64,000 nucleotides of DNA, taken from NCBI RefSeq assembly GCF_020510585.1, contig NZ_CP075190.1, positions 2,664,001 to 2,728,000 of the forward strand. The letters run 5' to 3'. The stretch is from Ferribacterium limneticum. Lineage in GTDB: Bacteria; Pseudomonadota; Gammaproteobacteria; Burkholderiales; Rhodocyclaceae. A program made the position numbers and the translations under genes. The notes under the pieces are model-generated. The model did not search any database, was not told the DNA's origin, and saw only the letters and a list, made by a program, of their open reading frames with translations. Below are positions 12,401-63,781 of this stretch, one piece after another. Each line of letters opens with the position of its first letter. Positions within the stretch are counted from its first letter, which is position 1.

Positions 12401-13717
12401 CGGAGGAGTTTGTCCCGAGTTGAGCAGGCTGGGGTTACGCCCTTTAACCTCTTCCGGGCGATAACCGGTAGTTTTGCAGAAGGCCTCGTTAACAAACTCA
12501 ATCTCTGCTGCCGTGTTGGTAATAAGAATGGCATTCGAGCTCTGTTCGACCGCCAGTGACAGTTTGGCGAGGGTTTCTTCGGTCCGTTTGCGCTTGATGA
12601 AGGCAGCAATGATCTCGGCTGCCGCGCTGAGGAATTTTTCTGCGACGCTGTTACGCAGGCTCCCAGCCGGAAGGTAGAGAACGAGGACACCCAGCATTTC
12701 GTCTGCGGCCAGCAACGGCTGGCAATAGTGGCCGTGATCGGCAATATCCTTGTAGGTAATCTCGTGGCTGGCATCGACGTGGTTGGAGAAAACCACTTTT
12801 CGGCTGGCGGCGGCTCGACCACAGAGACAGCGATCAAGCGGCAGATGATGGCATCGGGAGAGCACTCCTGGCGGCAGGTTGCGAGAAACACTTAACTCCA
12901 GCCCCACCTTGTCGTCGGCGGCCAGATGAATGCCGCCCTGCGGTCGTGTGGCGAGCCAGGGTATGGCCAGCAATTGGTCAAGGCAACGTTGCAGCGTCTC
13001 TTCCATGGAGGCTCCCGAGACGGTGGTTTCAATCAGGCGGCGCAGCACAGATTGTTGTTCCCGGTCTCGTTCAACCGCTGCCTCCGTAGCTTTGCGCTCG
13101 GAAATATCGATATGACTGATCACCGCCCCGTTGCCATCGGCCAGCGGAGTTACCAGCATGTTGAACCAGCGCTCCCGCTCTGGCGAATGGCAAGCATATT
13201 CAAGTGAGAAGCAAGGGCTGCTGCCGTCCAGAACGCCTTCTATGCCACTGCGCACCGCAGCCGCCTGACTGTCCGAATCCACTGCTCGGCTGCATGCCAC
13301 CAAATAATTGACCCCACAAGCATTCCGGGTTGCCTCGTCGCCACCGTTGGCTGCGGCAAAGTCCTGCCAGGCGCGGTTGGTATGACAGATAGTGCCGTCA
13401 GCATCAATCACCACAACGGCATGGCCCAGCGACTCGATGATGGCGTGGGTCAACTCTTCGCCCTGGCGCAGCGAGGCATCCGCACTAACAAGGGCTTTCT
13501 GGTAGGCCGCATTGCGCCGTAGCCAGAACTGGGCGCCAATGCTGACCAGAACAATTATGCCAACAGTCACCGCACTCTCAGCCGGCTGATCGTGCATGCC
13601 AAAGGTCAGCAAGGCAATGGCGGCAACGGCCAGTGGCAGATAGCGAAGGTATCGTGAAAAGGCAATGGCAACCCGTGACCTGGCAACCATAAGTTTGAAT
13701 CGCCAGTGGGTAGGCAT
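9491..13717 (-). CDS. BarA/ArcB-like hybrid sensor kinase with several PAS domains, GAF, REC and HPt
   Basis: A 1408-residue phosphorelay kinase. Two N-terminal membrane helices lie near 25-42 and 48-66. They are followed by PAS (about 90-210), GAF (about 225-375), three more PAS domains, HisKA with phospho-acceptor His802 (NMSHEIRTPMN), HATPase with GGTGLGLAIS, a receiver with Asp1199 (LMDVQMP) and a C-terminal HPt with His1342 (MTHTLKGT). All phosphotransfer residues are present. It lies downstream of a NarL-type regulator on the same strand, but an HPt usually passes phosphate to a separate receiver, so the partner is uncertain. The signal is unknown; PAS and GAF domains often bind haem, flavin or small ligands. 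Confidence 0.9.
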   Translation of the reverse strand: MPTHWRFKLMVARSRVAIAFSRYLRYLPLAVAAIALLTFGMHDQPAESAVTVGIIVLVSIGAQFWLRRNAAYQKALVSADASLRQGEELTHAIIESLGHAVVVIDADGTICHTNRAWQDFAAANGGDEATRNACGVNYLVACSRAVDSDSQAAAVRSGIEGVLDGSSPCFSLEYACHSPERERWFNMLVTPLADGNGAVISHIDISERKATEAAVERDREQQSVLRRLIETTVSGASMEETLQRCLDQLLAIPWLATRPQGGIHLAADDKVGLELSVSRNLPPGVLSRCHHLPLDRCLCGRAAASRKVVFSNHVDASHEITYKDIADHGHYCQPLLAADEMLGVLVLYLPAGSLRNSVAEKFLSAAAEIIAAFIKRKRTEETLAKLSLAVEQSSNAILITNTAAEIEFVNEAFCKTTGYRPEEVKGRNPSLLNSGQTPPETFAILWQTLKAGKSWRGEVINRCKDGSIFTAYQTISPLRQGDGNISHYVSHFEDITERKRSSNELDLHRHHLEELVCQRTKELEKLNQALVAKENFIHTITDNVPAMVSYWDADLRCRFANAAYLVWFNKKPEEMLGISAQELLGDELSRKSEPFLQAALRGQRQEFERSSTKLDGTTAYNLVTYIPDIVAGQVQGIYLFASDITALKETQITLGIRSADLERAQAISHLGSWHLDVRLDKLSWSNETYRIFGIPPGTPMTLSGFVECVHPEDREPVMRAWQAAQDGRPYDIEHRIVTNGEVKWVRERAELLLDENGEVIAAHGVVQDINELKNAEHATLQALAEAKRLALAKSEFLANMSHEIRTPMNAVLGLAQTGVRDNVGRKAQVNFQRILDSGKHLLSVVNDILDYSKIESGKLTVEQVTFKLGETIDRVVDLTAERAFSKGLLFRVSEAPDLPLEVSGDTTRLNQVLLNLLSNAIKFTERGIVSLSVVRAGTDIIFRVSDSGIGMTEDQIERLFTPFEQADPSTTRRFGGTGLGLAISARLVEAMGGKVVVESRPGVGSSFELQLPIATLESPEAIIPRGYTRVRQVGLSNVECGWLKDDLEQYGITVESAEVSEAFFLPSPDLLLFSEEALEKHCITPPPGSLRPFVLTTPGKQSDQPCALSDHAFTIQRPLRLRHLLGEFQQGQSGHGDFSSVARLIGINILAADDNELNRIVLEEVLSNEGAQTTFVVNGREAVDQVKDHPRGFDLVLMDVQMPLMDGHEATRRIHQITPTLPVIGLTAHALGEERDKCLAAGMEGHITKPIDIDNLVTTILHQLGKKEAPISVDRSNQARANLEESSTTSINWPALAERFNHRQAFIQKLLVTVKQSLAETPAKLRDAVNREDFETLAFMTHTLKGTCGNIHADALYQLAKQADDSARHGRPEALTLAMQTADALEEMLRTLSDESLPSDLASLLKYN

Positions 13718-56109: not shown

Positions 56110-56418
56110 TCACCGGCCATGCCAATACCGGCGATGTTCAGTTCGCCATCCTGACAAGGCAACAGCGCCCTCACCCAGCCGGATGCGCACGGCGCCATCG
56201 CGGTCGGTTCGCCAGATGTTTGCACCCATTGCCTCATAGCGCGCCAGCACTTCGCTCTTTGGATGACCGAAACGGTTGCGATAGCCGACCGGAATAACCG
56301 TTTCGGCTGCGCCGACCGCCTGCAGGAAAACCGGCGTCGATGAGGTCTTTGAACCATGGTGCGGCATGAGCAGGATATCGGCCGCCAACCCATCCGGATA
56401 GCGCTGGAGCAACTGTGA
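56110..56418 (-). pseudogene. comEC: Truncated comEC (C-terminal metallo-beta-lactamase-like end only)
   Basis: About 100 residues with DILLMPHHGSKTSSTPVFL...VIPVGYRNRFGHPKSEVLARYEAMGANIWRTDRDGAVRI match the C-terminal end of ComEC/Rec2, the DNA uptake channel. The frame is closed by TAG at 56419-56421 exactly where the AT-richer sequence begins, and there is no start codon in context. The missing 5' part may lie beyond the island, outside this window. Natural transformation through ComEC should be lost unless another copy exists. Confidence 0.85.
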
Positions 56419-56470
56419 CTAGATCCTTTTCTGTTCCCTCTTACTAACCCAATTCCATTCCAAACTTCCG

Positions 56471-57475
56471 ATGAAAAAACCAATTATTCTTGCCTCTCGC
56501 GCTTACGAGCAAAGCATTACAGAGCCGCGAGCCAAACCATTAGGCAAATCCATGCCGGCAGTCGAATCTCTAAATTCGGTGTCGCCCGATGGAAGAACGG
56601 CTCGTAATATGATGTCTGCTTTCTCCATTTGTAGTCTCCAAGATATGCTGAATCTTCCAATAGGAAAGTTGCTGACTGCGCATAGCAACTTGAGTATGTT
56701 CATTCAAGCCATTTCGGAAGCGAATGACGTACAGGTCACGACGGATAGTTACTGTGACCTAAAACGCCATACCCAAAGTTTACTTGATGCATGTAGTGAC
56801 ATCGGCCTACCGGTCACCAAAGCAGCCGTCTCCGAGTTCGCTGAAGAATTAAATCGTGCCGAACAGATCGGGCAGTTATTTGGGTTCCGCGGAGATAGTT
56901 TTCTTCGAATGAGGGCACGTCTACAAGCTTCGATGACGTGCCTTAGCTATGAATCCACCTTAAAAACGGCGCTGATTATGCCACCTCGTATGGCGGACTT
57001 CTACGAGCCACCAACCCCGCTATTCGGTGCAGAAGTGCAGTCGCAATTTCCATCATTGGCGTACGAAATTGAAGAGGCGGGGAAGTGCTTTGCCGTAGGG
57101 CGGAGTACGGCCGCAGTGTTTCATTTGATGAGGGTAATGGAGGCCGGAATTTATGCAGTCTCAAGGTGCCTCGACATTCCCGACCCTATCAAGGGTTCAG
57201 ACAAAAACTGGGGAAGGATGCTTAAAAATATTCGAGAGACCTGCGCTTCCCGAATCTCCGAAGGGCCCATAAAATGGGCAAACAATGGGGATAAGGCCTA
57301 TTTTGATGCCACTTACGCTATTCTTGACGCAGTAAGGAATGCGTGGAGAAATACAACTATGCATATAGAAAACAAATATATGCCTCACGAAGCGGAGCAA
57401 ATATTCATCGCTGTTCGTAGCTTTATGATGAAGCTCGCATCCCGGATGGACGAACAAGGCCAGCCACTTGCTTAA
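56471..57475 (+). CDS. Hypothetical protein with HEPN-like C-terminal region
   Basis: A 334-residue protein with no signal peptide or membrane helix. The C-terminal half is helical, with AVFHLMRVMEAGIYAVSRCL and later AVRNAWRNTTMHIENKY. Arg293-x4-His298 (RNTTMH) fits the Rx4-6H motif of HEPN ribonuclease domains. The N-terminal half is unrecognised. It is the first gene inside the island, 50 bases from the comEC break. The start is uncertain, as no ribosome-binding site precedes the ATG at 56471; an ATG at 56552 is an alternative. Whether it belongs to the GHKL-methylase system downstream is unknown. Confidence 0.65.
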   Translation: MKKPIILASRAYEQSITEPRAKPLGKSMPAVESLNSVSPDGRTARNMMSAFSICSLQDMLNLPIGKLLTAHSNLSMFIQAISEANDVQVTTDSYCDLKRHTQSLLDACSDIGLPVTKAAVSEFAEELNRAEQIGQLFGFRGDSFLRMRARLQASMTCLSYESTLKTALIMPPRMADFYEPPTPLFGAEVQSQFPSLAYEIEEAGKCFAVGRSTAAVFHLMRVMEAGIYAVSRCLDIPDPIKGSDKNWGRMLKNIRETCASRISEGPIKWANNGDKAYFDATYAILDAVRNAWRNTTMHIENKYMPHEAEQIFIAVRSFMMKLASRMDEQGQPLA

Positions 57476-57573
57476 TAAGGCTTAACTGGAATTCCCCGTA
57501 GCATTGTTTATGGGGGGCGCCTCAGTTAACACCAATGATCGTAGTCCGCTTCTTTCGATGACTATGCAATAAT

Positions 57574-57600
57574 ATTGAGTGTGCGGCACGCGCACTCAAT
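57574..57600 (+). promoter_or_regulatory. 27-base hairpin/palindrome upstream of the GHKL-methylase operon
   Basis: ATTGAGTG and CACTCAAT are perfect inverted arms. With the inner bases they form a 12-pair RNA stem with one G-U and a GCA loop. It lies 45 bases before the GHKL gene. It could be an operator for self-regulation by the modification system or a leader attenuator; A-rich rather than T-rich sequence follows, which argues against a plus-strand terminator. Confidence 0.55.
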
Positions 57601-57645
57601 AAAAAGGCGGCTACGGAGTATGGCCGCAACAACATGGAGTTGCCA

Positions 57646-59739
57646 ATGGCTACAACCTCTCGCCGCGCCGTACCGGTCGATGGCGGCCACTTGGACAGAG
57701 CCGTCAAAACTGCTCCAGCCGGCAAGACATCCCCCTACCATCTACGCATTTCAAGACTCACCGTCGACAAGCTCGGGGTTAAGCTTTACGACAAAGCCAG
57801 CGCTGTAGTTGCCGAACTCATAGCCAATGGTTACGACGCAGACGCCGAAACCGTCACTGTTAGCTTGCCTCTAAACATCCAACTGGCCTCCATGGCGGGA
57901 GGAAAGCTCCACGACTTAGGCTATGTGATTGACGTTGAAGATGATGGTCATGGAATGACGCCTGAGGAAGCGATTGGCTTCTACTTGCGGGTTGGTGCAG
58001 ATCGTCGTACCCGTAAGGGCCAGGATGGCAGCCGGTCGCGCAAGAAGAAGCGCCCTGTGATGGGACGCAAAGGCATTGGCAAGCTTGCTCCTTTCGGCAT
58101 TTGCAGACGTATCGAGGTTTGGTCCGCTGGTGGGGAGAAGACGGAAAAAGGCTACTCAGTCACGCATTTCTTCATGGATTTCGACAAGATCGTCACTGAT
58201 GAGGACGACTCCGTACCCTTGGAAGTGGGCAGCGAAGACCAAACTTGGAGCAAAAAGTCCGGTACGCGCATTCGGCTTACGTCGTTCCTGTCCAAGCGTG
58301 TACCGGAACTTGAAACCTTTCTGCGACAACTCGCCGTCCGCTTTACGTTTGCCAGGCCGGACTTCAAGATTCTCATCGTTAACGCGACCGATGGCGCCGC
58401 CGGGCCTGTACAAGTAAACCAGTTGGACATCCCTCTTATGCCGGGGACAAGAATTGATCTGACCAGTCGCCCCGTGGTCGGCGACGACGGTACGATGTTT
58501 CCCGTTTCTGGCTGGCTCGGCATGGGCAAAGAAGCGTACAAATACGAAGAAATGATGGGGGTTCGCATCTACGCCCGCGGCAAAATAGTAGGAGTCACGC
58601 GCGACTTCAATCAGCCAGCAGGCTTTACTGGGGAGTTTACGATGCGTTCGTACCTGGTGGGCCAAGTCGAAGCGGAATGGCTTGACCTCGACCAAGGCGA
58701 TGACCTAGTTCGAACCGACCGGCAAGATATTCTTTGGGACTCTGACTATGGGCAGTTGCTTCGACGTTGGGGCGCGGAATTAATCAAAGAGATTGCTCGT
58801 AACTCGCGCGAGCCTCGTCGTATACGCGTGCGTGACGAATTCTTGCGTAAGTCGAAAATCGAAGAACGGGCACGGGCACGCTTCGGTGACAGAGAAGTTG
58901 CACGCGTGGCAATTGATTTGGCAAAAAAGTTTGGTGGATTCGCTGCAGAAGATGAACTAAACGACGACGTCTACGTCGATGATCTGTCACAGATCATTCT
59001 GTCTGTCGCCCCTCATCAGGCGTTAATGGAAGCCTTTCACGAATTCACGAATCAGGTGACGAAGGGCCAAGCTTCGATGGATCAAATGCTCGACATCTTC
59101 AATAAAGCGCAAATCGCCGAGCTTGCTTCGTATGCACAGATTGCTGCTCAACGCGTAAGAGTTATCAACGACTTGCAGCAAATCATCGACGTGTCGATGG
59201 ACGAAAGCCAATTCCAAGCGCTCATCGCCAATGCACCTTGGTTGATTGAACCTTCATGGACGGTAATTACCAAAAATCAGAGTTTAAAGAACTTCAAGCA
59301 CGCATTTGAGAAGTTCTGGAAGGCGAAGCATGGCACCGATTTGTCCTTGGCAATTGACCACGAAGACAAGCGTCCAGACTTCACTTTGGTCAGCATCGAT
59401 GGGCTACTGCACATCGTGGAAATCAAAAAGGCGGGGCATACGTTTGACGATGCAGATTTTGATCGGCTCATCAATTACGTTGACGCCTTTGAACAATTTT
59501 TTGAAGAAAACAAAGAAACAGTGGTGGAGTTCTATCGGGAATGGAAAATAGACCTCGTTGCTGACGGTCTGAAGCTCAAGAAAAGTGCCAATGCACGTTC
59601 GTTTGAAGGCCTTGAAAAAGATAATCGCGTCAAGCGAATGTCTTGGCGTGACTTCCTCTCACGTGCAAAAAAAGTCCACGAACAGTTTCTGGACGTACAC
59701 GATCTAGGCACTCAAAAGCGGCAAGGCAAACGAGCATGA
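57646..59739 (+). CDS. GHKL (MORC/MutL-like) ATPase fused to a PD-(D/E)XK nuclease domain, protein A
   Basis: A 697-residue protein. The N-terminal GHKL ATPase has Glu57, Asn61 and Asp64 in VVAELIANGYDAD, VEDDGHGMTPEEA and RKGIGKLAPFGI. A middle transducer-like region follows. The C-terminal part has a PD-(D/E)XK nuclease signature: Asp578 in KRPDFTLVS, then Glu592 and Lys594 in HIVEIKKAG, resembling Shedu/DUF4263-type nucleases. The ATG at 57646 has GGAG six bases upstream and is preferred over 57634. The methyltransferase gene overlaps its stop by four bases. GHKL ATPases are known neighbours of bacterial C5-methylases (Iyer, Abhiman and Aravind, 2008). It probably acts in restriction or mismatch-like DNA processing; untested. 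Confidence 0.85.
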   Translation: MATTSRRAVPVDGGHLDRAVKTAPAGKTSPYHLRISRLTVDKLGVKLYDKASAVVAELIANGYDADAETVTVSLPLNIQLASMAGGKLHDLGYVIDVEDDGHGMTPEEAIGFYLRVGADRRTRKGQDGSRSRKKKRPVMGRKGIGKLAPFGICRRIEVWSAGGEKTEKGYSVTHFFMDFDKIVTDEDDSVPLEVGSEDQTWSKKSGTRIRLTSFLSKRVPELETFLRQLAVRFTFARPDFKILIVNATDGAAGPVQVNQLDIPLMPGTRIDLTSRPVVGDDGTMFPVSGWLGMGKEAYKYEEMMGVRIYARGKIVGVTRDFNQPAGFTGEFTMRSYLVGQVEAEWLDLDQGDDLVRTDRQDILWDSDYGQLLRRWGAELIKEIARNSREPRRIRVRDEFLRKSKIEERARARFGDREVARVAIDLAKKFGGFAAEDELNDDVYVDDLSQIILSVAPHQALMEAFHEFTNQVTKGQASMDQMLDIFNKAQIAELASYAQIAAQRVRVINDLQQIIDVSMDESQFQALIANAPWLIEPSWTVITKNQSLKNFKHAFEKFWKAKHGTDLSLAIDHEDKRPDFTLVSIDGLLHIVEIKKAGHTFDDADFDRLINYVDAFEQFFEENKETVVEFYREWKIDLVADGLKLKKSANARSFEGLEKDNRVKRMSWRDFLSRAKKVHEQFLDVHDLGTQKRQGKRA

Positions 59740-61175
59740 GCAAACTACGAGCCGTCAGCCTCTTTTCCAATTGCGGCGCTGGAGATGTCGGTTATCGCAA
59801 CGCTGGCTTTTATTTCGAAGTGATGGCCGAATTAGACCCGCGTCGACTGGACGTTTGTCTTCTCAATCACCCTGGTGCAGAAGGGGTCGCAGGCGACCTT
59901 CGCAAGACCTGGACGACCGTGATCAAGAGGTATCGTGTTCGGGCGGGAAGAGCTCGCCCAGCGTTGCTTTGTGCCTGTCCACCTTGCCAAGGAATGAGTT
60001 CCGCGCGTTCCGGCTTAGGCAGTCATGACGATGCTGCTGCCGGCTCAAAAGACGAGCGCAATTTACTGGCGACAGTCGTCGCCAATGTGGCGCTGGAGTT
60101 AAAACCTTCGTTGATTGTCGTTGAAAACGTTCCGGCGTTCTTTACGCGAAAGGTGCATCATCCAGAAGACAAGAAACCAGTTTCGGCAGCGAACTATTTG
60201 ATTACTGCGTTGGCAGATGAGTATGTTGCATTCCCGTTGATCGCTGATTTGTGTGATTTTGGTGTTCCACAATCCCGCAATCGTGCCTTCCTGACCTTCG
60301 TTCGCAAAGATCTGCCTGGTCTAAAAGAATCGCTCCGTATTGGTCGCGCACCGTTCCCTCGGGCAACCCATGCCCCGGACGTTGGCAACTCCCGACCAAT
60401 CACACTTTCCGAGGCACTCGAAAGCTTTGCGCTACCTGCTTTGGATGCGGCGACTCCGGAGACAGCATCTGCCAGCGAATATGCTGGATTTCATTCCGTT
60501 CCAGTATGGGACGAGCGCATTTACGCGATGGTCGCGGCGATCCCCAAGGCAACCGGGCGCAGTGCTTGGGACAATGACGTTTGCCATCATTGTGGGCCCG
60601 TCAAGGTTTTGCCTGAGACTGTAACCTGTCCACTTTGCAGATCCCCGCTCCTTCGCCCCATCGTCAAAGAAGAGGATGGAAGCTATCGTTTAGTTAAAGG
60701 ATTCAAAAGTAGCTACCGGCGGATGCACAGCAACAAACCGGCAGCTACTGTGACCACGGCCAGTGGTCACATCGGCAGTGACTACACCATTCACCCAACC
60801 CAAAACCGCCTGCTCAGCCCTCTCGAATGCTCGCTACTTCAGACGTTTCCCAAGGATTTCAAATGGGGGGACGCGTTGAAGAAGTTGGGGCACACGAACG
60901 TGCGAGAAATGATCGGTGAAGCCGTCCCACCAGCTTTCACCAAATTGCATGGTGAAGTGCTCCATGGCATCTTGAAGCGCAAGTGGGAACGTGCGCCCAT
61001 TGCCTTGAGTGATGAACGATGCCTAAAGGGCTGGGCAAAGCTTGTGGCGGCAGCCAAGAAAGATGATCGCGATGATCCTCGTAGCTACTTTGACCATGGA
61101 AAATTGCCCCCATCTGGACGCCCTGCAGTGAACAAGCAGGCGGAACACTCGGCGCCCGTGAAGCCAGGGATGTGA
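59736..61175 (+). CDS. C5-cytosine DNA methyltransferase
   Basis: A 479-residue enzyme of the Dcm/HhaI class. Motif I is SLFSNCGAGDVGYRNAGF and motif IV holds the catalytic Cys84 in CPPCQGMSSARSG. Motif VI is ENVPAFF, motif VIII QSRNR and motif X GEAVPPAF. The target-recognition region includes a four-cysteine zinc-ribbon-like insertion (residues 283-301, CHHC...CPLC). It is translationally coupled to GHKL protein A and convergent with vsr after seven bases. It presumably protects self DNA at a site recognised by the system; the sequence methylated cannot be read from the protein. Confidence 0.93.
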   Translation: MSKLRAVSLFSNCGAGDVGYRNAGFYFEVMAELDPRRLDVCLLNHPGAEGVAGDLRKTWTTVIKRYRVRAGRARPALLCACPPCQGMSSARSGLGSHDDAAAGSKDERNLLATVVANVALELKPSLIVVENVPAFFTRKVHHPEDKKPVSAANYLITALADEYVAFPLIADLCDFGVPQSRNRAFLTFVRKDLPGLKESLRIGRAPFPRATHAPDVGNSRPITLSEALESFALPALDAATPETASASEYAGFHSVPVWDERIYAMVAAIPKATGRSAWDNDVCHHCGPVKVLPETVTCPLCRSPLLRPIVKEEDGSYRLVKGFKSSYRRMHSNKPAATVTTASGHIGSDYTIHPTQNRLLSPLECSLLQTFPKDFKWGDALKKLGHTNVREMIGEAVPPAFTKLHGEVLHGILKRKWERAPIALSDERCLKGWAKLVAAAKKDDRDDPRSYFDHGKLPPSGRPAVNKQAEHSAPVKPGM

Positions 61176-61182
61176 TCGAATT

Positions 61183-61620
61183 TCAACGAACTAGCAGGAA
61201 ATCACGTAAACGGTTGGCGAGTTGCTCCTGATCTCGCACTTCACACTCCCAGACGATCAGTACGCCCCATCCCAGTTCACGAAGCGCAACAACGTTTTTT
61301 GCGTCGCGCATCTGATTTGCTTCGATCTTGATGCGCCATGTTTCCATATTTTTGGTTGGACTCTTTGCGCGCTTGCATCGCTCGTGCCCATGCCAGAAGC
61401 AGCCGTGAACCAGAATAATTTTCCGGTGCCCCGGAAGTACGATATCAGGCGAGCCGGGCAAATCCTTGCGATGCAGACGAAATCTATAGCCCATCGCATG
61501 CAACAAACGTCGAACCGCCATCTCCGGTGCAGTGTCATGGCGACGAACCGCCTGCATGCGGAGACGGGTGGCTGATGTTACGTCGACGAATACGGGCTTA
61601 ACTTCATACTTACTTGGCAT
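61183..61620 (-). CDS. vsr: Very short patch repair endonuclease, Vsr
   Basis: A 145-residue Vsr enzyme with TSATRLRMQAVRRHDTAPEMAVRRLLHAMG, the catalytic region GSPDIVLPGHRKIILVHGCFWHGHERC (Asp and two His) and the closing GWGVLIVWECEV. Vsr nicks T:G mismatches that arise when 5-methylcytosine deaminates, and it usually accompanies C5-methylases. Here it lies tail to tail with the methylase and downstream of GHKL protein B on the same strand (49-base gap). Confidence 0.95.
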   Translation of the reverse strand: MPSKYEVKPVFVDVTSATRLRMQAVRRHDTAPEMAVRRLLHAMGYRFRLHRKDLPGSPDIVLPGHRKIILVHGCFWHGHERCKRAKSPTKNMETWRIKIEANQMRDAKNVVALRELGWGVLIVWECEVRDQEQLANRLRDFLLVR

Positions 61621-61669
61621 GTATGCCTCATTGGTTGCAATTACCTATAAGCACACCTTTTGGACATAT

Positions 61670-63781
61670 TCATTCCTTGGGTTTCGGTGTCCCTGATACA
61701 GGTTTTAGCCTATTAACGAGTTCACGGAGCAATGGTTCCCGTTCGCTCATTTGTGTGAGGAACTCTTGAACTGCCTGGCCGCCGAGTTCGCAAACCTGCT
61801 GAATCCGTGCATCATCACCAACAGGATCCGTTCCGACCAACAACGCCGTAAGAAGATCCATGTGGCCACGTCTTGATCGGAGCAGAACGTCATCCCATTT
61901 TTCAAAATCTATGGCTTCTGAACGATGGCTGGAGAGATAAGCTGCGTGACCACCCGATACGAGCAAACCTGACACTTTTGCGCTTTGGAAGCGTGATGCA
62001 AGATACAACACGTAAGAATGCAGTTGCTGGTATTCCTCTAGCTCCGCAACATCGCCCGGTCCTTTGAGTTCAACCACGAGTATTTCCCGATCCTCGGCCG
62101 TGCCGAAGAAAACGAAGTCAGGCAACGTACGATCAGCTGGAATGGGAGGAAACGGATTACGCTTTGCAATCAACTCGGCCTCGTCTTTGACGATGTTGGC
62201 AAGCGATTTCCGATAGACGAAGCGTTCATACTTCGAATGAAGTATCCAGGGAAAATTTTCGATGAGTTGCTGGAGTTGCGTTTCCTGGCCTTTGAGTATG
62301 TGCCCATGGAGCTGCGTTAGGGCAAAAACACGCAAAGAGAACGCCACTGCAAGTGACAAGCTCTCTGGTACCAATTCGTCGCTGAGCCTGTTTACTGACG
62401 ACACGAAGGCTGATGGTTCAAATGTTGTGACTTGAGTCCACAGTTCTTTGATTAATTTTCGAGCAGGCTCGTGCACCCATGCCTTCGCAGCGGCCTCGAT
62501 GAGGCGAACTTTGGCGTCTTGATCCTTCCCGAGGCGCGGCGTCACATCGCTAATTAAGTCCACCAAATGGCTCTTCTCGGAGGTCCGCAACTTGATGTCT
62601 GGGGAGTTGTTCAGAAAACCTTCGATCAGCGCGGTGTCTTCAATTTTTGATATCTCCTTTCTTCGCAGCTCATAGGAACTAATCCATGCAACTACGGACT
62701 GAGCCCCCCATGTGTAAAGGGATTCAAGATCTGAGTCTTCCCAATTCACGCTTGTCCGATCAGTGGAGATCGTATCTTGTTGCAACTCGTCAATCCAATC
62801 TGCTTCAACAACGGCATACATGTAGCGTGAGAAAATTTCACGTCCTTTGACGCCGAAAAAGAAGGGACGGTCCTGCCCAATCTTACCGTGAGCATAAACA
62901 CCAACACCGGCCTCCTCTTGTGACCAACTCGCAGCCTTAACGAAGCCAACCCAGAACTTTACCGATCTATTACCTACCGGCGTGGCAATAACGTGTTCCG
63001 ACATGCCTTGGCTCGGTATCCGAAGCTCCCACTCAGGAAATGCGTCGGTTTCAGTTAGCAAGCCACCATTGACGTGGACATTAAAATCAGATCGAGCCAA
63101 AGTGACAGTAAATCGACGCCCGAGCGATTCACGAAGCTGCACAGTCGAAATTGGCTTCCTTATTGTTAGTGAATTTGCATAAATCAACGTTCCAGCACCT
63201 GATTTTGCAATGGCTCCTTTGAATTTCTCGAGAATCCCCTGCATGGCAGGCTCTTGAGCAGACGTGACATCGCCAATGGGAATATCATCTGCCAAAACTT
63301 TTGGCGTATAAATAGCCGTGGCTGAGGCATCTTGACTTTCAGTCGCCAGCATCGCCGAATAGTCGAATCGGAGCCACATAGCGGCTCCATTGCGAACAGT
63401 CACTACATGGACGATTCGCGCAATTCCGAACGGCGCTAACTTGCCGATTCCCTTTCGCCCCATTGGATATCGAGCCCCTGAAGCGCCTGTGGTGGGCGCA
63501 GGCCTCGCTTTCGGCTGACCGACCACCAAATAATTGGTGACGAGATCTTGCTTACTCATGCCTCGACCATCGTCGTACACGCTGATGCCTTCTGGCGTAC
63601 CTTGGGCGGATACGTCTAGATCAATAAAGACATTGGACGCCATTGCATCCCATGAGTTTGATACTAGCTCTGCCAAAACATTCGTGGGTTTGTTCTGATA
63701 TAGCTTCAGGCCTAGATGTTCGATGACGTTGTGTGCAAACCGGAGAGTCAATGGTTGTGCATCTGAAGCAGGCTGATTCAT
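61670..63781 (-). CDS. GHKL (MORC/MutL-like) ATPase fused to a PD-(D/E)XK nuclease domain, protein B
   Basis: A 703-residue paralogue in architecture of protein A. GHKL motifs: Glu38, Asn42 and Asp45 in NVLAELVSNSWDA, VYDDGRGMSKQD and RKGIGKLAPFGI. Nuclease signature: Asp555 in TLPDFVFFG, Glu571 and Lys573 in LVVELKGPGD. The middle regions of A and B differ, so they are probably distinct subunits rather than a recent duplication. It starts the minus-strand operon that also holds vsr. A heteromeric A-B ATPase-nuclease is inferred. Confidence 0.85.
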   Translation of the reverse strand: MNQPASDAQPLTLRFAHNVIEHLGLKLYQNKPTNVLAELVSNSWDAMASNVFIDLDVSAQGTPEGISVYDDGRGMSKQDLVTNYLVVGQPKARPAPTTGASGARYPMGRKGIGKLAPFGIARIVHVVTVRNGAAMWLRFDYSAMLATESQDASATAIYTPKVLADDIPIGDVTSAQEPAMQGILEKFKGAIAKSGAGTLIYANSLTIRKPISTVQLRESLGRRFTVTLARSDFNVHVNGGLLTETDAFPEWELRIPSQGMSEHVIATPVGNRSVKFWVGFVKAASWSQEEAGVGVYAHGKIGQDRPFFFGVKGREIFSRYMYAVVEADWIDELQQDTISTDRTSVNWEDSDLESLYTWGAQSVVAWISSYELRRKEISKIEDTALIEGFLNNSPDIKLRTSEKSHLVDLISDVTPRLGKDQDAKVRLIEAAAKAWVHEPARKLIKELWTQVTTFEPSAFVSSVNRLSDELVPESLSLAVAFSLRVFALTQLHGHILKGQETQLQQLIENFPWILHSKYERFVYRKSLANIVKDEAELIAKRNPFPPIPADRTLPDFVFFGTAEDREILVVELKGPGDVAELEEYQQLHSYVLYLASRFQSAKVSGLLVSGGHAAYLSSHRSEAIDFEKWDDVLLRSRRGHMDLLTALLVGTDPVGDDARIQQVCELGGQAVQEFLTQMSEREPLLRELVNRLKPVSGTPKPKE

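What the first reader, a model, noticed from the sequence alone, without database searches (positions are those of the whole stretch)
56419..63781. Twin GHKL-nuclease proteins with a C5-methylase and Vsr: candidate defence system
Two MORC/MutL-like ATPases, each with a PD-(D/E)XK nuclease domain, bracket a methyltransferase and Vsr in two convergent operons. MutL/MORC-like genes near modification systems are described by comparative genomics (Iyer, Abhiman and Aravind, 2008), but I know of no characterised system with two fused ATPase-nucleases. They may act as a heteromeric, methylation-controlled restriction machine.
Basis: partly seen in the sequence, partly recalled or inferred. Interest (0 to 1): 0.85.

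Follow-up and report, generated by a model that had tools for sequence, protein, structure and literature searches.

The report
Restriction system with two ATPase-nucleases
This is a bacterial DNA-restriction gene cluster, carried on what looks like a jumping element, in which one DNA-marking enzyme and one repair enzyme sit between two different ATP-driven DNA-cutting proteins; the two-cutter layout recurs in other bacteria, but whether the two cutters work together has not been tested.

Summary
A (57634-59739 +) and B (61670-63781 -) each join a MORC/Hsp90/MutL-type GHKL ATPase to a PD-(D/E)XK nuclease motif, motifs intact. They flank a C5-methylase M (59736-61175 +) and a Vsr (61183-61620 -) in two convergent operons. 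The layout recurs: of 10 complete loci of the proteobacterial A clade (window included), 8 carry B, one a second A-like protein, one neither. GHKL-nucleases are known (paraMORC3, BbrUII/HgiDII restriction enzymes, the phage-defence protein VcSduA); A and B fall below the BbrUII/HgiDII and Shedu cut-offs. Two of them sharing one methylase is the new part. A and M co-diverge, A and B do not: B subfamilies 36-53% identical to each other are exchanged beside conserved A-M, and a B-type protein occurs with a related M and no A on a Pseudomonas plasmid. I favour two restriction nucleases sharing one methylase, B being exchangeable, over an obligate A-B heteromer, which is not excluded. The locus appears to be cargo of a 43-kb Tn7-like element in comEC. 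No activity, specificity or defence was tested.

The parts
57634..59739 (+). A: GHKL ATPase + PD-(D/E)XK nuclease protein, 701 aa (start codon uncertain; a database entry from this genome is 4 residues shorter)
57814..58083 (+). A: GHKL N, G1 and G2 boxes (residues 61-150)
   Evidence: Alignment; invariant columns
59371..59427 (+). A: nuclease motif RPDF...VEIK (residues 580-598)
   Evidence: Alignment; R580, D582, F583, E596, K598 invariant in 38 rows
59736..61175 (+). M: C5-cytosine DNA methyltransferase with PCQ, ENV and QxRxR motifs and a CxxC...CxxC insert in the target-recognition region; overlaps A by 4 bases
61183..61620 (-). Vsr: very-short-patch-type mismatch nicking endonuclease, 145 aa
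   Evidence: (TIGR00632 128.7 bits, cut-off 97.85)
61670..63781 (-). B: second GHKL ATPase + PD-(D/E)XK nuclease protein, 703 aa, first gene of the B-Vsr operon
63440..63670 (-). B: GHKL N, G1 and G2 boxes (residues 38-114)
   Evidence: Alignment
62063..62122 (-). B: nuclease motif PDF...VELK (residues 554-573)
   Evidence: Alignment; P554, D555, E571, K573 invariant in 38 rows

Best explanation
A Type II-like restriction-modification locus with one methylase, one Vsr and two restriction nucleases. M puts 5-methylcytosine on its recognition site in host DNA; Vsr nicks at T:G mismatches left when that 5-methylcytosine deaminates. A and B each act, probably as ATP-closed homodimers of the GHKL clamp type, on DNA in which M's site is unmethylated, and cut with the C-terminal PD-(D/E)XK domain. 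A-M is the core unit; B is a second effector at the same site that is exchanged between lineages, which could limit phage escape from any one nuclease. Shown here: gene layout, domains and motifs, recurrence, conservation of M's recognition region, exchange of B. Inferred from known families: methylation, mismatch repair, ATP-gated cleavage, defence. Inferred from genomics only: that B cuts at M's site, and that A and B act independently.
For: Intact GHKL boxes and D...ExK in the 12 A-type and 10 B-type rows. A-M without B: L008, whose assembly gives no B match beyond A itself, and more distantly L014 and L018. M-B without A: the P. aeruginosa plasmid pY89 has a B-type protein (54%) convergent with an M of the same subfamily (38%, same CxxC insert), and the search with A finds in that plasmid only this same gene, at 25%. 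A related M (52%) pairs with a third GHKL-nuclease type plus Vsr in L109, in the same genome as the A-M locus L014. M's recognition region is conserved, by eye on the alignment, whichever partner is present: B1, B2, B3, A2 or none. A and M co-diverge (Spearman 0.87, Mantel p 0.0002, 10 loci) and Vsr follows both (A-V 0.83, p 0.004; M-V 0.88, p 0.0002; 8 loci); A-B (0.16, p 0.19) and M-B (0.20, p 0.14) do not (8 loci). The fewest changes of partner state on the A tree are 7 over 12 rows, 4 being the least possible with five states. The window's genome has one other C5 methylase, 24% identical, beside another Vsr. Relatives acting with one GHKL-nuclease: VcSduA; the two BbrUII/HgiDII members in my set have one GHKL frame in their loci.
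Against: The second GHKL-nuclease is rarely missing next to the proteobacterial A clade (present in 9 of 10, though these loci are related and not independent), which would be unexpected if it were dispensable. That B recognises M's site is not shown; other methylase classes (N4, N6) in the genome were not searched. Replacement of one partner by a distant homologue does not disprove a complex. The Mantel tests have 8 loci and low power; several forks of the A tree are unresolved. Neither nuclease domain passes a family cut-off, and neither was tested as an isolated fold. The strain that carries pY89 could have an A on its chromosome; that was not looked at.
Confidence: 0.45

Rival explanations
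1. Heteromeric machine: A and B form a mixed GHKL clamp, each cutting one strand at an unmethylated M site, like two-subunit restriction enzymes; both are required.
For: A second GHKL-nuclease stands beside A in 9 of 10 complete A-clade loci. 10 contig lengths are shared between the 120 listed A and 120 listed B homologues against a shifted-length control mean of 0.68, maximum 3. Both active sites are intact in the rows aligned. Two-gene precedent in another family: GrwAB needs both genes (passages of PMC12137116).
Against: No A-B co-divergence. B is replaced by 36-53% identical subfamilies, or by an A-like protein, without visible change in A: A of the window is 90% identical to A of L006, whose B is 38%, but 84% to A of L107, whose B is 89%. 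A-M-Vsr without B and M-B without A both exist.
Confidence: 0.25
2. B is an autonomous Shedu-like or VcSduA-like phage-defence nuclease with its own trigger, not governed by M's methylation; it travels beside the A-M system.
For: B is the exchanged part and its divergence does not follow M's (Spearman 0.20, Mantel p 0.14, 8 loci). VcSduA, with the same architecture, defends on its own. Weak SduA_C signal in B (18.7 bits, cut-off 27).
Against: B-type proteins also pair with C5 methylases in other contexts: pY89 with an M of the same subfamily, L108 with an M of another subfamily. SduA_C is below cut-off. Vsr, a methylase companion, is in B's operon, and V and B distances correlate (0.61, p 0.006, 6 loci).
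Confidence: 0.2
3. Ordinary stacking: A-M is the working system and B is a passenger gathered in a defence-rich mobile element, without functional link.
For: The locus appears to be cargo of a Tn7-like element. L007 has an MzaB-like gene with C5 methylase and Vsr homologues upstream, and L013 has AbiE genes between Vsr and B.
Against: The same convergent position next to M is filled by B or an A-like protein in 9 of 10 loci, with repeated changes of type on the A tree.
Confidence: 0.07

Closest known systems
BbrUII/HgiDII family restriction enzymes (NCBIfam NF050001)
   Same: GHKL N-terminus, homologous over most of the length, gene next to a C5 methylase and sometimes Vsr. Members over the cut-off in my set are L024 (688 bits) and L029 (711 bits), each beside a C5 methylase.
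   Different: A scores 249.9 and B 155.3 against a cut-off of 550. Those two loci have one GHKL frame each. Site GTCGAC of the HgiDII methylase from passages of PMC5867850; no evidence that M shares it.
paraMORC3 of Iyer, Abhiman and Aravind 2008 (PMC2292703)
   Same: GHKL + S5 + C-terminal RE-fold nuclease with E-D-ExK; the wider group is associated with methylases and Vsr (parts 1-3 of 4 of the text and search passages read).
   Different: The parts read describe MORC + paraMORC1 pairs in some neighbourhoods, not two paraMORC3 proteins around one methylase. Figures are not held, so such a case could be drawn there.
VcSduA, Shedu type I-D (PMC12137116)
   Same: GHKL ATPase plus PD-(D/E)XK nuclease; the authors say such proteins were previously annotated paraMORC3; phage defence abolished by ATPase or nuclease mutation (section read).
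   Different: Works as a single gene; it carries the Shedu domain DUF4263, for which A and B are below the Pfam cut-off.
GrwAB and TgvAB two-gene restriction systems
   Same: Paired proteins with a shared N-terminal domain; both GrwAB genes required (passages of PMC12137116).
   Different: DUF262/GmrSD family, modification-dependent; unrelated domains.
Paralogous CCGG restriction enzymes R1.NgoAXIV and R.NgoAXIII (PMC12871193, preprint)
   Same: Precedent for two paralogous restriction enzymes of one genome cutting the same site (passages).
   Different: They lie in two operons, each with its own methylase; whether they are GHKL proteins was not established here.
MZA methylase-linked system
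   Same: GHKL ATPase in a methylase-linked defence system (composition recalled).
Heterodimeric Type IIT enzymes such as BbvCI (PMC6326814, start of abstract seen)
   Same: Two nuclease subunits per site would be the analogous mechanism.
   Different: No GHKL module mentioned in the text seen; no evidence here that A and B form a complex.

Membership tests
BbrUII/HgiDII restriction enzymes (NF050001) | whole-protein score over the curated cut-off of 550 bits | tested here: not met
   A 249.9, B 155.3 bits
paraMORC3 | GHKL domain with intact ATP-binding boxes | tested here: met
   HATPase_c_3 over cut-off; N, G1, G2 boxes aligned
paraMORC3 | S5-type domain after the GHKL domain | tested here: met
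   Model residues 47-391 (A) and 14-374 (B) align with the MORC3 ATPase cassette, which includes the S5 part (recalled); model confidence moderate (mean pLDDT 76.5 and 75.0)
paraMORC3 | C-terminal RE-fold nuclease with E-D-ExK | tested here: inconclusive
   D and ExK residues invariant, but the nuclease fold was not matched by itself (the fold lists cover the ATPase part only)
Shedu (SduA) | DUF4263/SduA_C domain over Pfam cut-off (27 bits) | tested here: not met
   A 15.1, B 18.7 bits; PADLOC SduA 15.5 bits in A, none listed for B
MZA system | MzaB equivalog over cut-off 850 | tested here: not met
   B 24.1 bits, A not listed
Type II restriction-modification system | DNA methylase with catalytic motifs next to a nuclease gene | tested here: met
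   PF00145 108.6 bits; PCQ, ENV, QxRxR in the sequence; adjacency
Type II restriction-modification system | nuclease cuts the unmethylated site of the methylase | not testable with these tools
   needs biochemistry or phage and plasmid challenge
Two-subunit (heterodimeric) restriction enzyme | both subunits always together and co-evolving | tested here: inconclusive
   9 of 10 loci have a second GHKL-nuclease, but A-B distances are uncorrelated (8 loci) and each type occurs without the other
Tn7-like transposon (carrier) | TnsB-type transposase, TnsC/TniB ATPase and TniQ in order | tested here: met
   rve 43.2 bits + Mu-transpos_C 25.1, TniB 53.0, TniQ 48.0, all over cut-off
Tn7-like transposon (carrier) | TGT...ACA ends with 5-base target duplication | tested here: met
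   Begins TGTGAC at 56414, ends ...GAGACA, GCAAC on both sides; the empty site gives one open frame of 798 codons
Tn7-like transposon (carrier) | ends that share longer inverted, TnsB-binding repeats | tested here: inconclusive
   Best ungapped match between the two ends was 14 of 24 bases; repeats inside each end were not analysed

The most novel reading that the evidence does not exclude
A and B form one methylation-licensed machine in which two unlike GHKL clamps meet on DNA: A-M is the constant recognition and licensing core, and B is an exchangeable second jaw (B1, B2, B3 or an A-like protein) that changes how or where the DNA is cut or which phage inhibitors are evaded. This would be a modular, partner-swapping restriction enzyme, of which I saw no description in my paper searches.
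Probability: 0.2. Interest if true: 0.75.

Novelty: new variant of a known kind. Interest (0 to 1): 0.5.

Why it matters
It links MORC/MutL-type ATPases to restriction in a compact, recurrent locus where one methylase is shared by two unlike GHKL-nuclease proteins. Natural loci with B exchanged, missing, or present without A give a ready set of comparisons to ask how GHKL clamps gate a nuclease by DNA methylation, a question that also concerns MORC proteins of animals and plants.

Tried and rejected
Rejected: that 56471-57475 belongs to the system (no homologue in the 79 loci). Rejected: membership in BbrUII/HgiDII, Shedu or MZA (below cut-offs). Led nowhere: search for the A-M DNA in E. coli genomes (no match); B in the class and phylum samples (only the window's own genome, 1 of 369 and 1 of 398); B in viral contigs (one 39% relative, L088) and A there (three weak relatives); B in phage records (2 weak matches); sequence search for solved relatives (the listed hits are Hsp90- or MutL-type ATPase domains, apart from one chance-level entry for A; the lists for B were capped at 60 of 84 and 60 of 150); PHROGs (A and B both match phrog_6203, unknown function); paper searches for a twin GHKL-nuclease locus (none seen in the listings; two searches sought HgiDII and BbrUII). 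The fold lists name no nuclease match for the C-termini; that part was not folded alone.

Rows dropped before counts: one search found 125 relatives of A and kept the best 80 (79 loci); the rest were not seen. L016 (contig ends inside A), L017 (A frame ends at about residue 334, IS-like sequence after it by eye) and L041 (39-residue fragment) were left out of the 10 complete A-clade loci; L015 (3,773-base contig) was left out of the partner-state count. L107 was found by searching with B, and the window was given, so the A-found set is 8 loci: 6 with B, 1 with A2, 1 with neither; L009 and L010 are close relatives. The GHKL profile was built from rows that include several of the loci it then counted. 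Trees have open forks.
Full report

RECURRENCE. A scan of GTDB contigs with A found 125 relatives and kept 79 loci. Laying the five window proteins on their ORFs, and adding one locus found later with B, gives 10 complete loci of the proteobacterial A clade: window, L006, L007, L008, L009, L010, L011, L012, L013, L107. Eight have A-M and a convergent B (no Vsr match in L009 and L010), L012 has A-M-Vsr with a second A-like protein (40% to A) convergent, and L008 has A-M-Vsr with no B in its assembly beyond the matches to A itself. Leaving out the window and L107, which were not found by A, the figures are 6, 1 and 1 of 8. An independent hint: the 120 listed A and 120 listed B database hits share 10 longest-contig lengths, against a mean of 0.68 and a maximum of 3 when lengths are shifted (one of the ten is the L011 contig). 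The system is rare in the samples searched: B at E <= 1e-60 in 1 of 369 genomes of the class and, at 1e-40, in 1 of 398 of the phylum (both the window's own genome), in 3 of 399 in the family of L007's genome (two of them L006 and L007 again) and in 2 of 398 in the family of L010's (one of them L010 again). More widely, 11 of the 79 loci hold two or more GHKL frames by my own profile; some are other things, such as an MzaB-like gene in L007 or a histidine-kinase-like protein in L063.

EXCHANGE OF B. B falls into subfamilies: B1 (window, L107, L009, L010), B2 (L011) and B3 (L006, L007, L013), 36-53% identical to each other. Beside them A and M change little: A of the window is 90% identical to A of L006, whose B is 38%, but 84% to A of L107, whose B is 89%. 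Distances of A and M correlate (0.87, Mantel p 0.0002, 10 loci), Vsr follows A and M (0.83, p 0.004 and 0.88, p 0.0002, 8 loci) and also B (0.61, p 0.006, 6 loci), while A-B (0.16, p 0.19) and M-B (0.20, p 0.14) do not correlate (8 loci). On the A tree the fewest changes of partner state are 7 over 12 rows, 4 being the least possible with five states, some forks being unresolved. M's recognition region is conserved whichever partner is present, judged by eye on the alignment. B3 comes with a small extra ORF carrying its own PD...ELK motif in 3 of 3 loci.

EACH PART ALONE. A-M without B: L008, and more distantly L014 and L018. M-B without A: plasmid pY89 of P. aeruginosa, where a 54% B-type protein converges with an M 38% identical to the window's, sharing the CxxC insert; the search with A finds in that plasmid only the same gene. 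The chromosome of that strain was not examined. L109, in the same genome as L014, has a third GHKL-nuclease type with an M 52% identical to the window's and a Vsr; its ExK motif is degenerate. L108 has a B-type protein in tandem with an M of another subfamily. The window's genome has two C5 methylases; the other is 24% identical and lies beside another Vsr. Other methylase classes were not searched.

MECHANISM. From known families: C5 methylases protect sites (recalled); Vsr corrects mispairs from deaminated 5-methylcytosine (passage of PMC8011034); GHKL modules close as ATP-bound dimers (recalled). For VcSduA, mutation of the ATPase or the nuclease residue abolishes phage defence (PMC12137116, section on VcSduA read). 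Inference: A and B are two restriction nucleases that read the absence of M's mark. The conservation of M's recognition region across different B types, and B's pairing with a related M where A is absent, favour B acting at M's site. The lack of A-B co-divergence and the solo occurrences favour independent action over an obligate heteromer. The presence of a second GHKL-nuclease in 9 of 10 loci argues the other way, so the heteromer keeps a real probability. A precedent for two paralogous enzymes cutting one site in one genome, though each with its own methylase, is R1.NgoAXIV and R.NgoAXIII (passages of the preprint PMC12871193).

COMPARISON WITH THE KNOWN. The architecture is that of paraMORC3 (PMC2292703, parts 1-3 of 4 read), of BbrUII/HgiDII restriction enzymes (NF050001; L024 and L029 pass the cut-off, A and B do not), and of VcSduA. 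An E. coli phage record (P2-like by its gene names) carries a gene annotated ParaMORC3 convergent with a Dcm-type methylase, and a Pantoea plasmid a GHKL protein after a C5 methylase, so single GHKL-nuclease plus methylase pairs occur on several kinds of mobile DNA. In the listings of my searches I saw no description of two GHKL-nucleases sharing one methylase; most subscription papers, and all figures, were out of reach.

CARRIER. To the right of B follow a gene for a 224-aa protein without family, then a TnsB-type transposase with an N-terminal TnsA-like motif (by eye), a TniB/TnsC and a TniQ. The left edge (TGTGAC at 56414) and a right edge (genome position about 2,763,733) are both flanked by GCAAC, and closing the gap gives a single open frame of 798 codons in comEC. 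The system thus looks like cargo of a Tn7-like element of about 43.3 kb in comEC. Against a single simple element: the two ends share no longer inverted repeat (best 14 of 24 bases), and the right part of the interval was not analysed for nested insertions. Defence cargo of Tn7-like elements is known (PMC8649781, listing and start of abstract only).

VERDICT. Real, recurrent, of a known kind, with a new twist: two GHKL-nucleases, one of them exchangeable, around one methylase. Function and cooperation are untested.

Noticed in passing
window 56414 to beyond the window end (genome about 2720414-2763733): What looks like a Tn7-like element of about 43.3 kb (TnsAB-like, TnsC/TniB, TniQ; TGT...ACA ends, GCAAC duplication) splits comEC; the restriction locus is its left-end cargo.
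   Followed up: partly
window 56471-57475 +: 334-aa protein with no Pfam, NCBIfam or PADLOC match and one weak PHROGs match (19.2 bits); near its C-terminus an R-x4-H motif (RNTTMH) as in HEPN RNases, seen by eye only.
   Followed up: no
L006 9340-9873 -, L007 13019-13570 -, L013 about 12995-13594 -: Small ORF between Vsr and B3 with FPDV...FELKKS, a further PD-(D/E)XK-like motif, in the three B3 loci; the clustering did not find it in L004, L009, L010 or L011.
   Followed up: partly
L109 8008-11856 + (same genome as L014): GHKL-nuclease of a third type with degenerate ExK (LEFV) next to an M 52% identical to the window's and a Vsr; that genome therefore has two loci with related methylases and different GHKL proteins.
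   Followed up: partly
own genome 964-969 kb (L115 2287-7100): Separate locus with a C5 methylase and Vsr beside a 1066-aa protein; possibly DISARM-like (recalled, not tested by a family search).
   Followed up: no
L005 8574-12520 (between the two halves of comEC): Cluster with a short E2-like ORF (by eye), a ThiF/JAB fusion and a TCAD9/APH-like protein, perhaps a ubiquitin-like defence cluster.
   Followed up: no
L116 5971-9019 (Escherichia phage PhiR44_1): Phage record with a gene annotated ParaMORC3 convergent with a gene annotated Dcm protein.
   Followed up: no
L007 2902-6590: MzaB-like GHKL gene (330 bits, cut-off 850) with C5 methylase and Vsr homologues upstream of the A-M-Vsr-B locus.
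   Followed up: no
L017 4900-6027: A homologue whose frame stops at about residue 334 and is followed by IS-like sequence, by eye.
   Followed up: no
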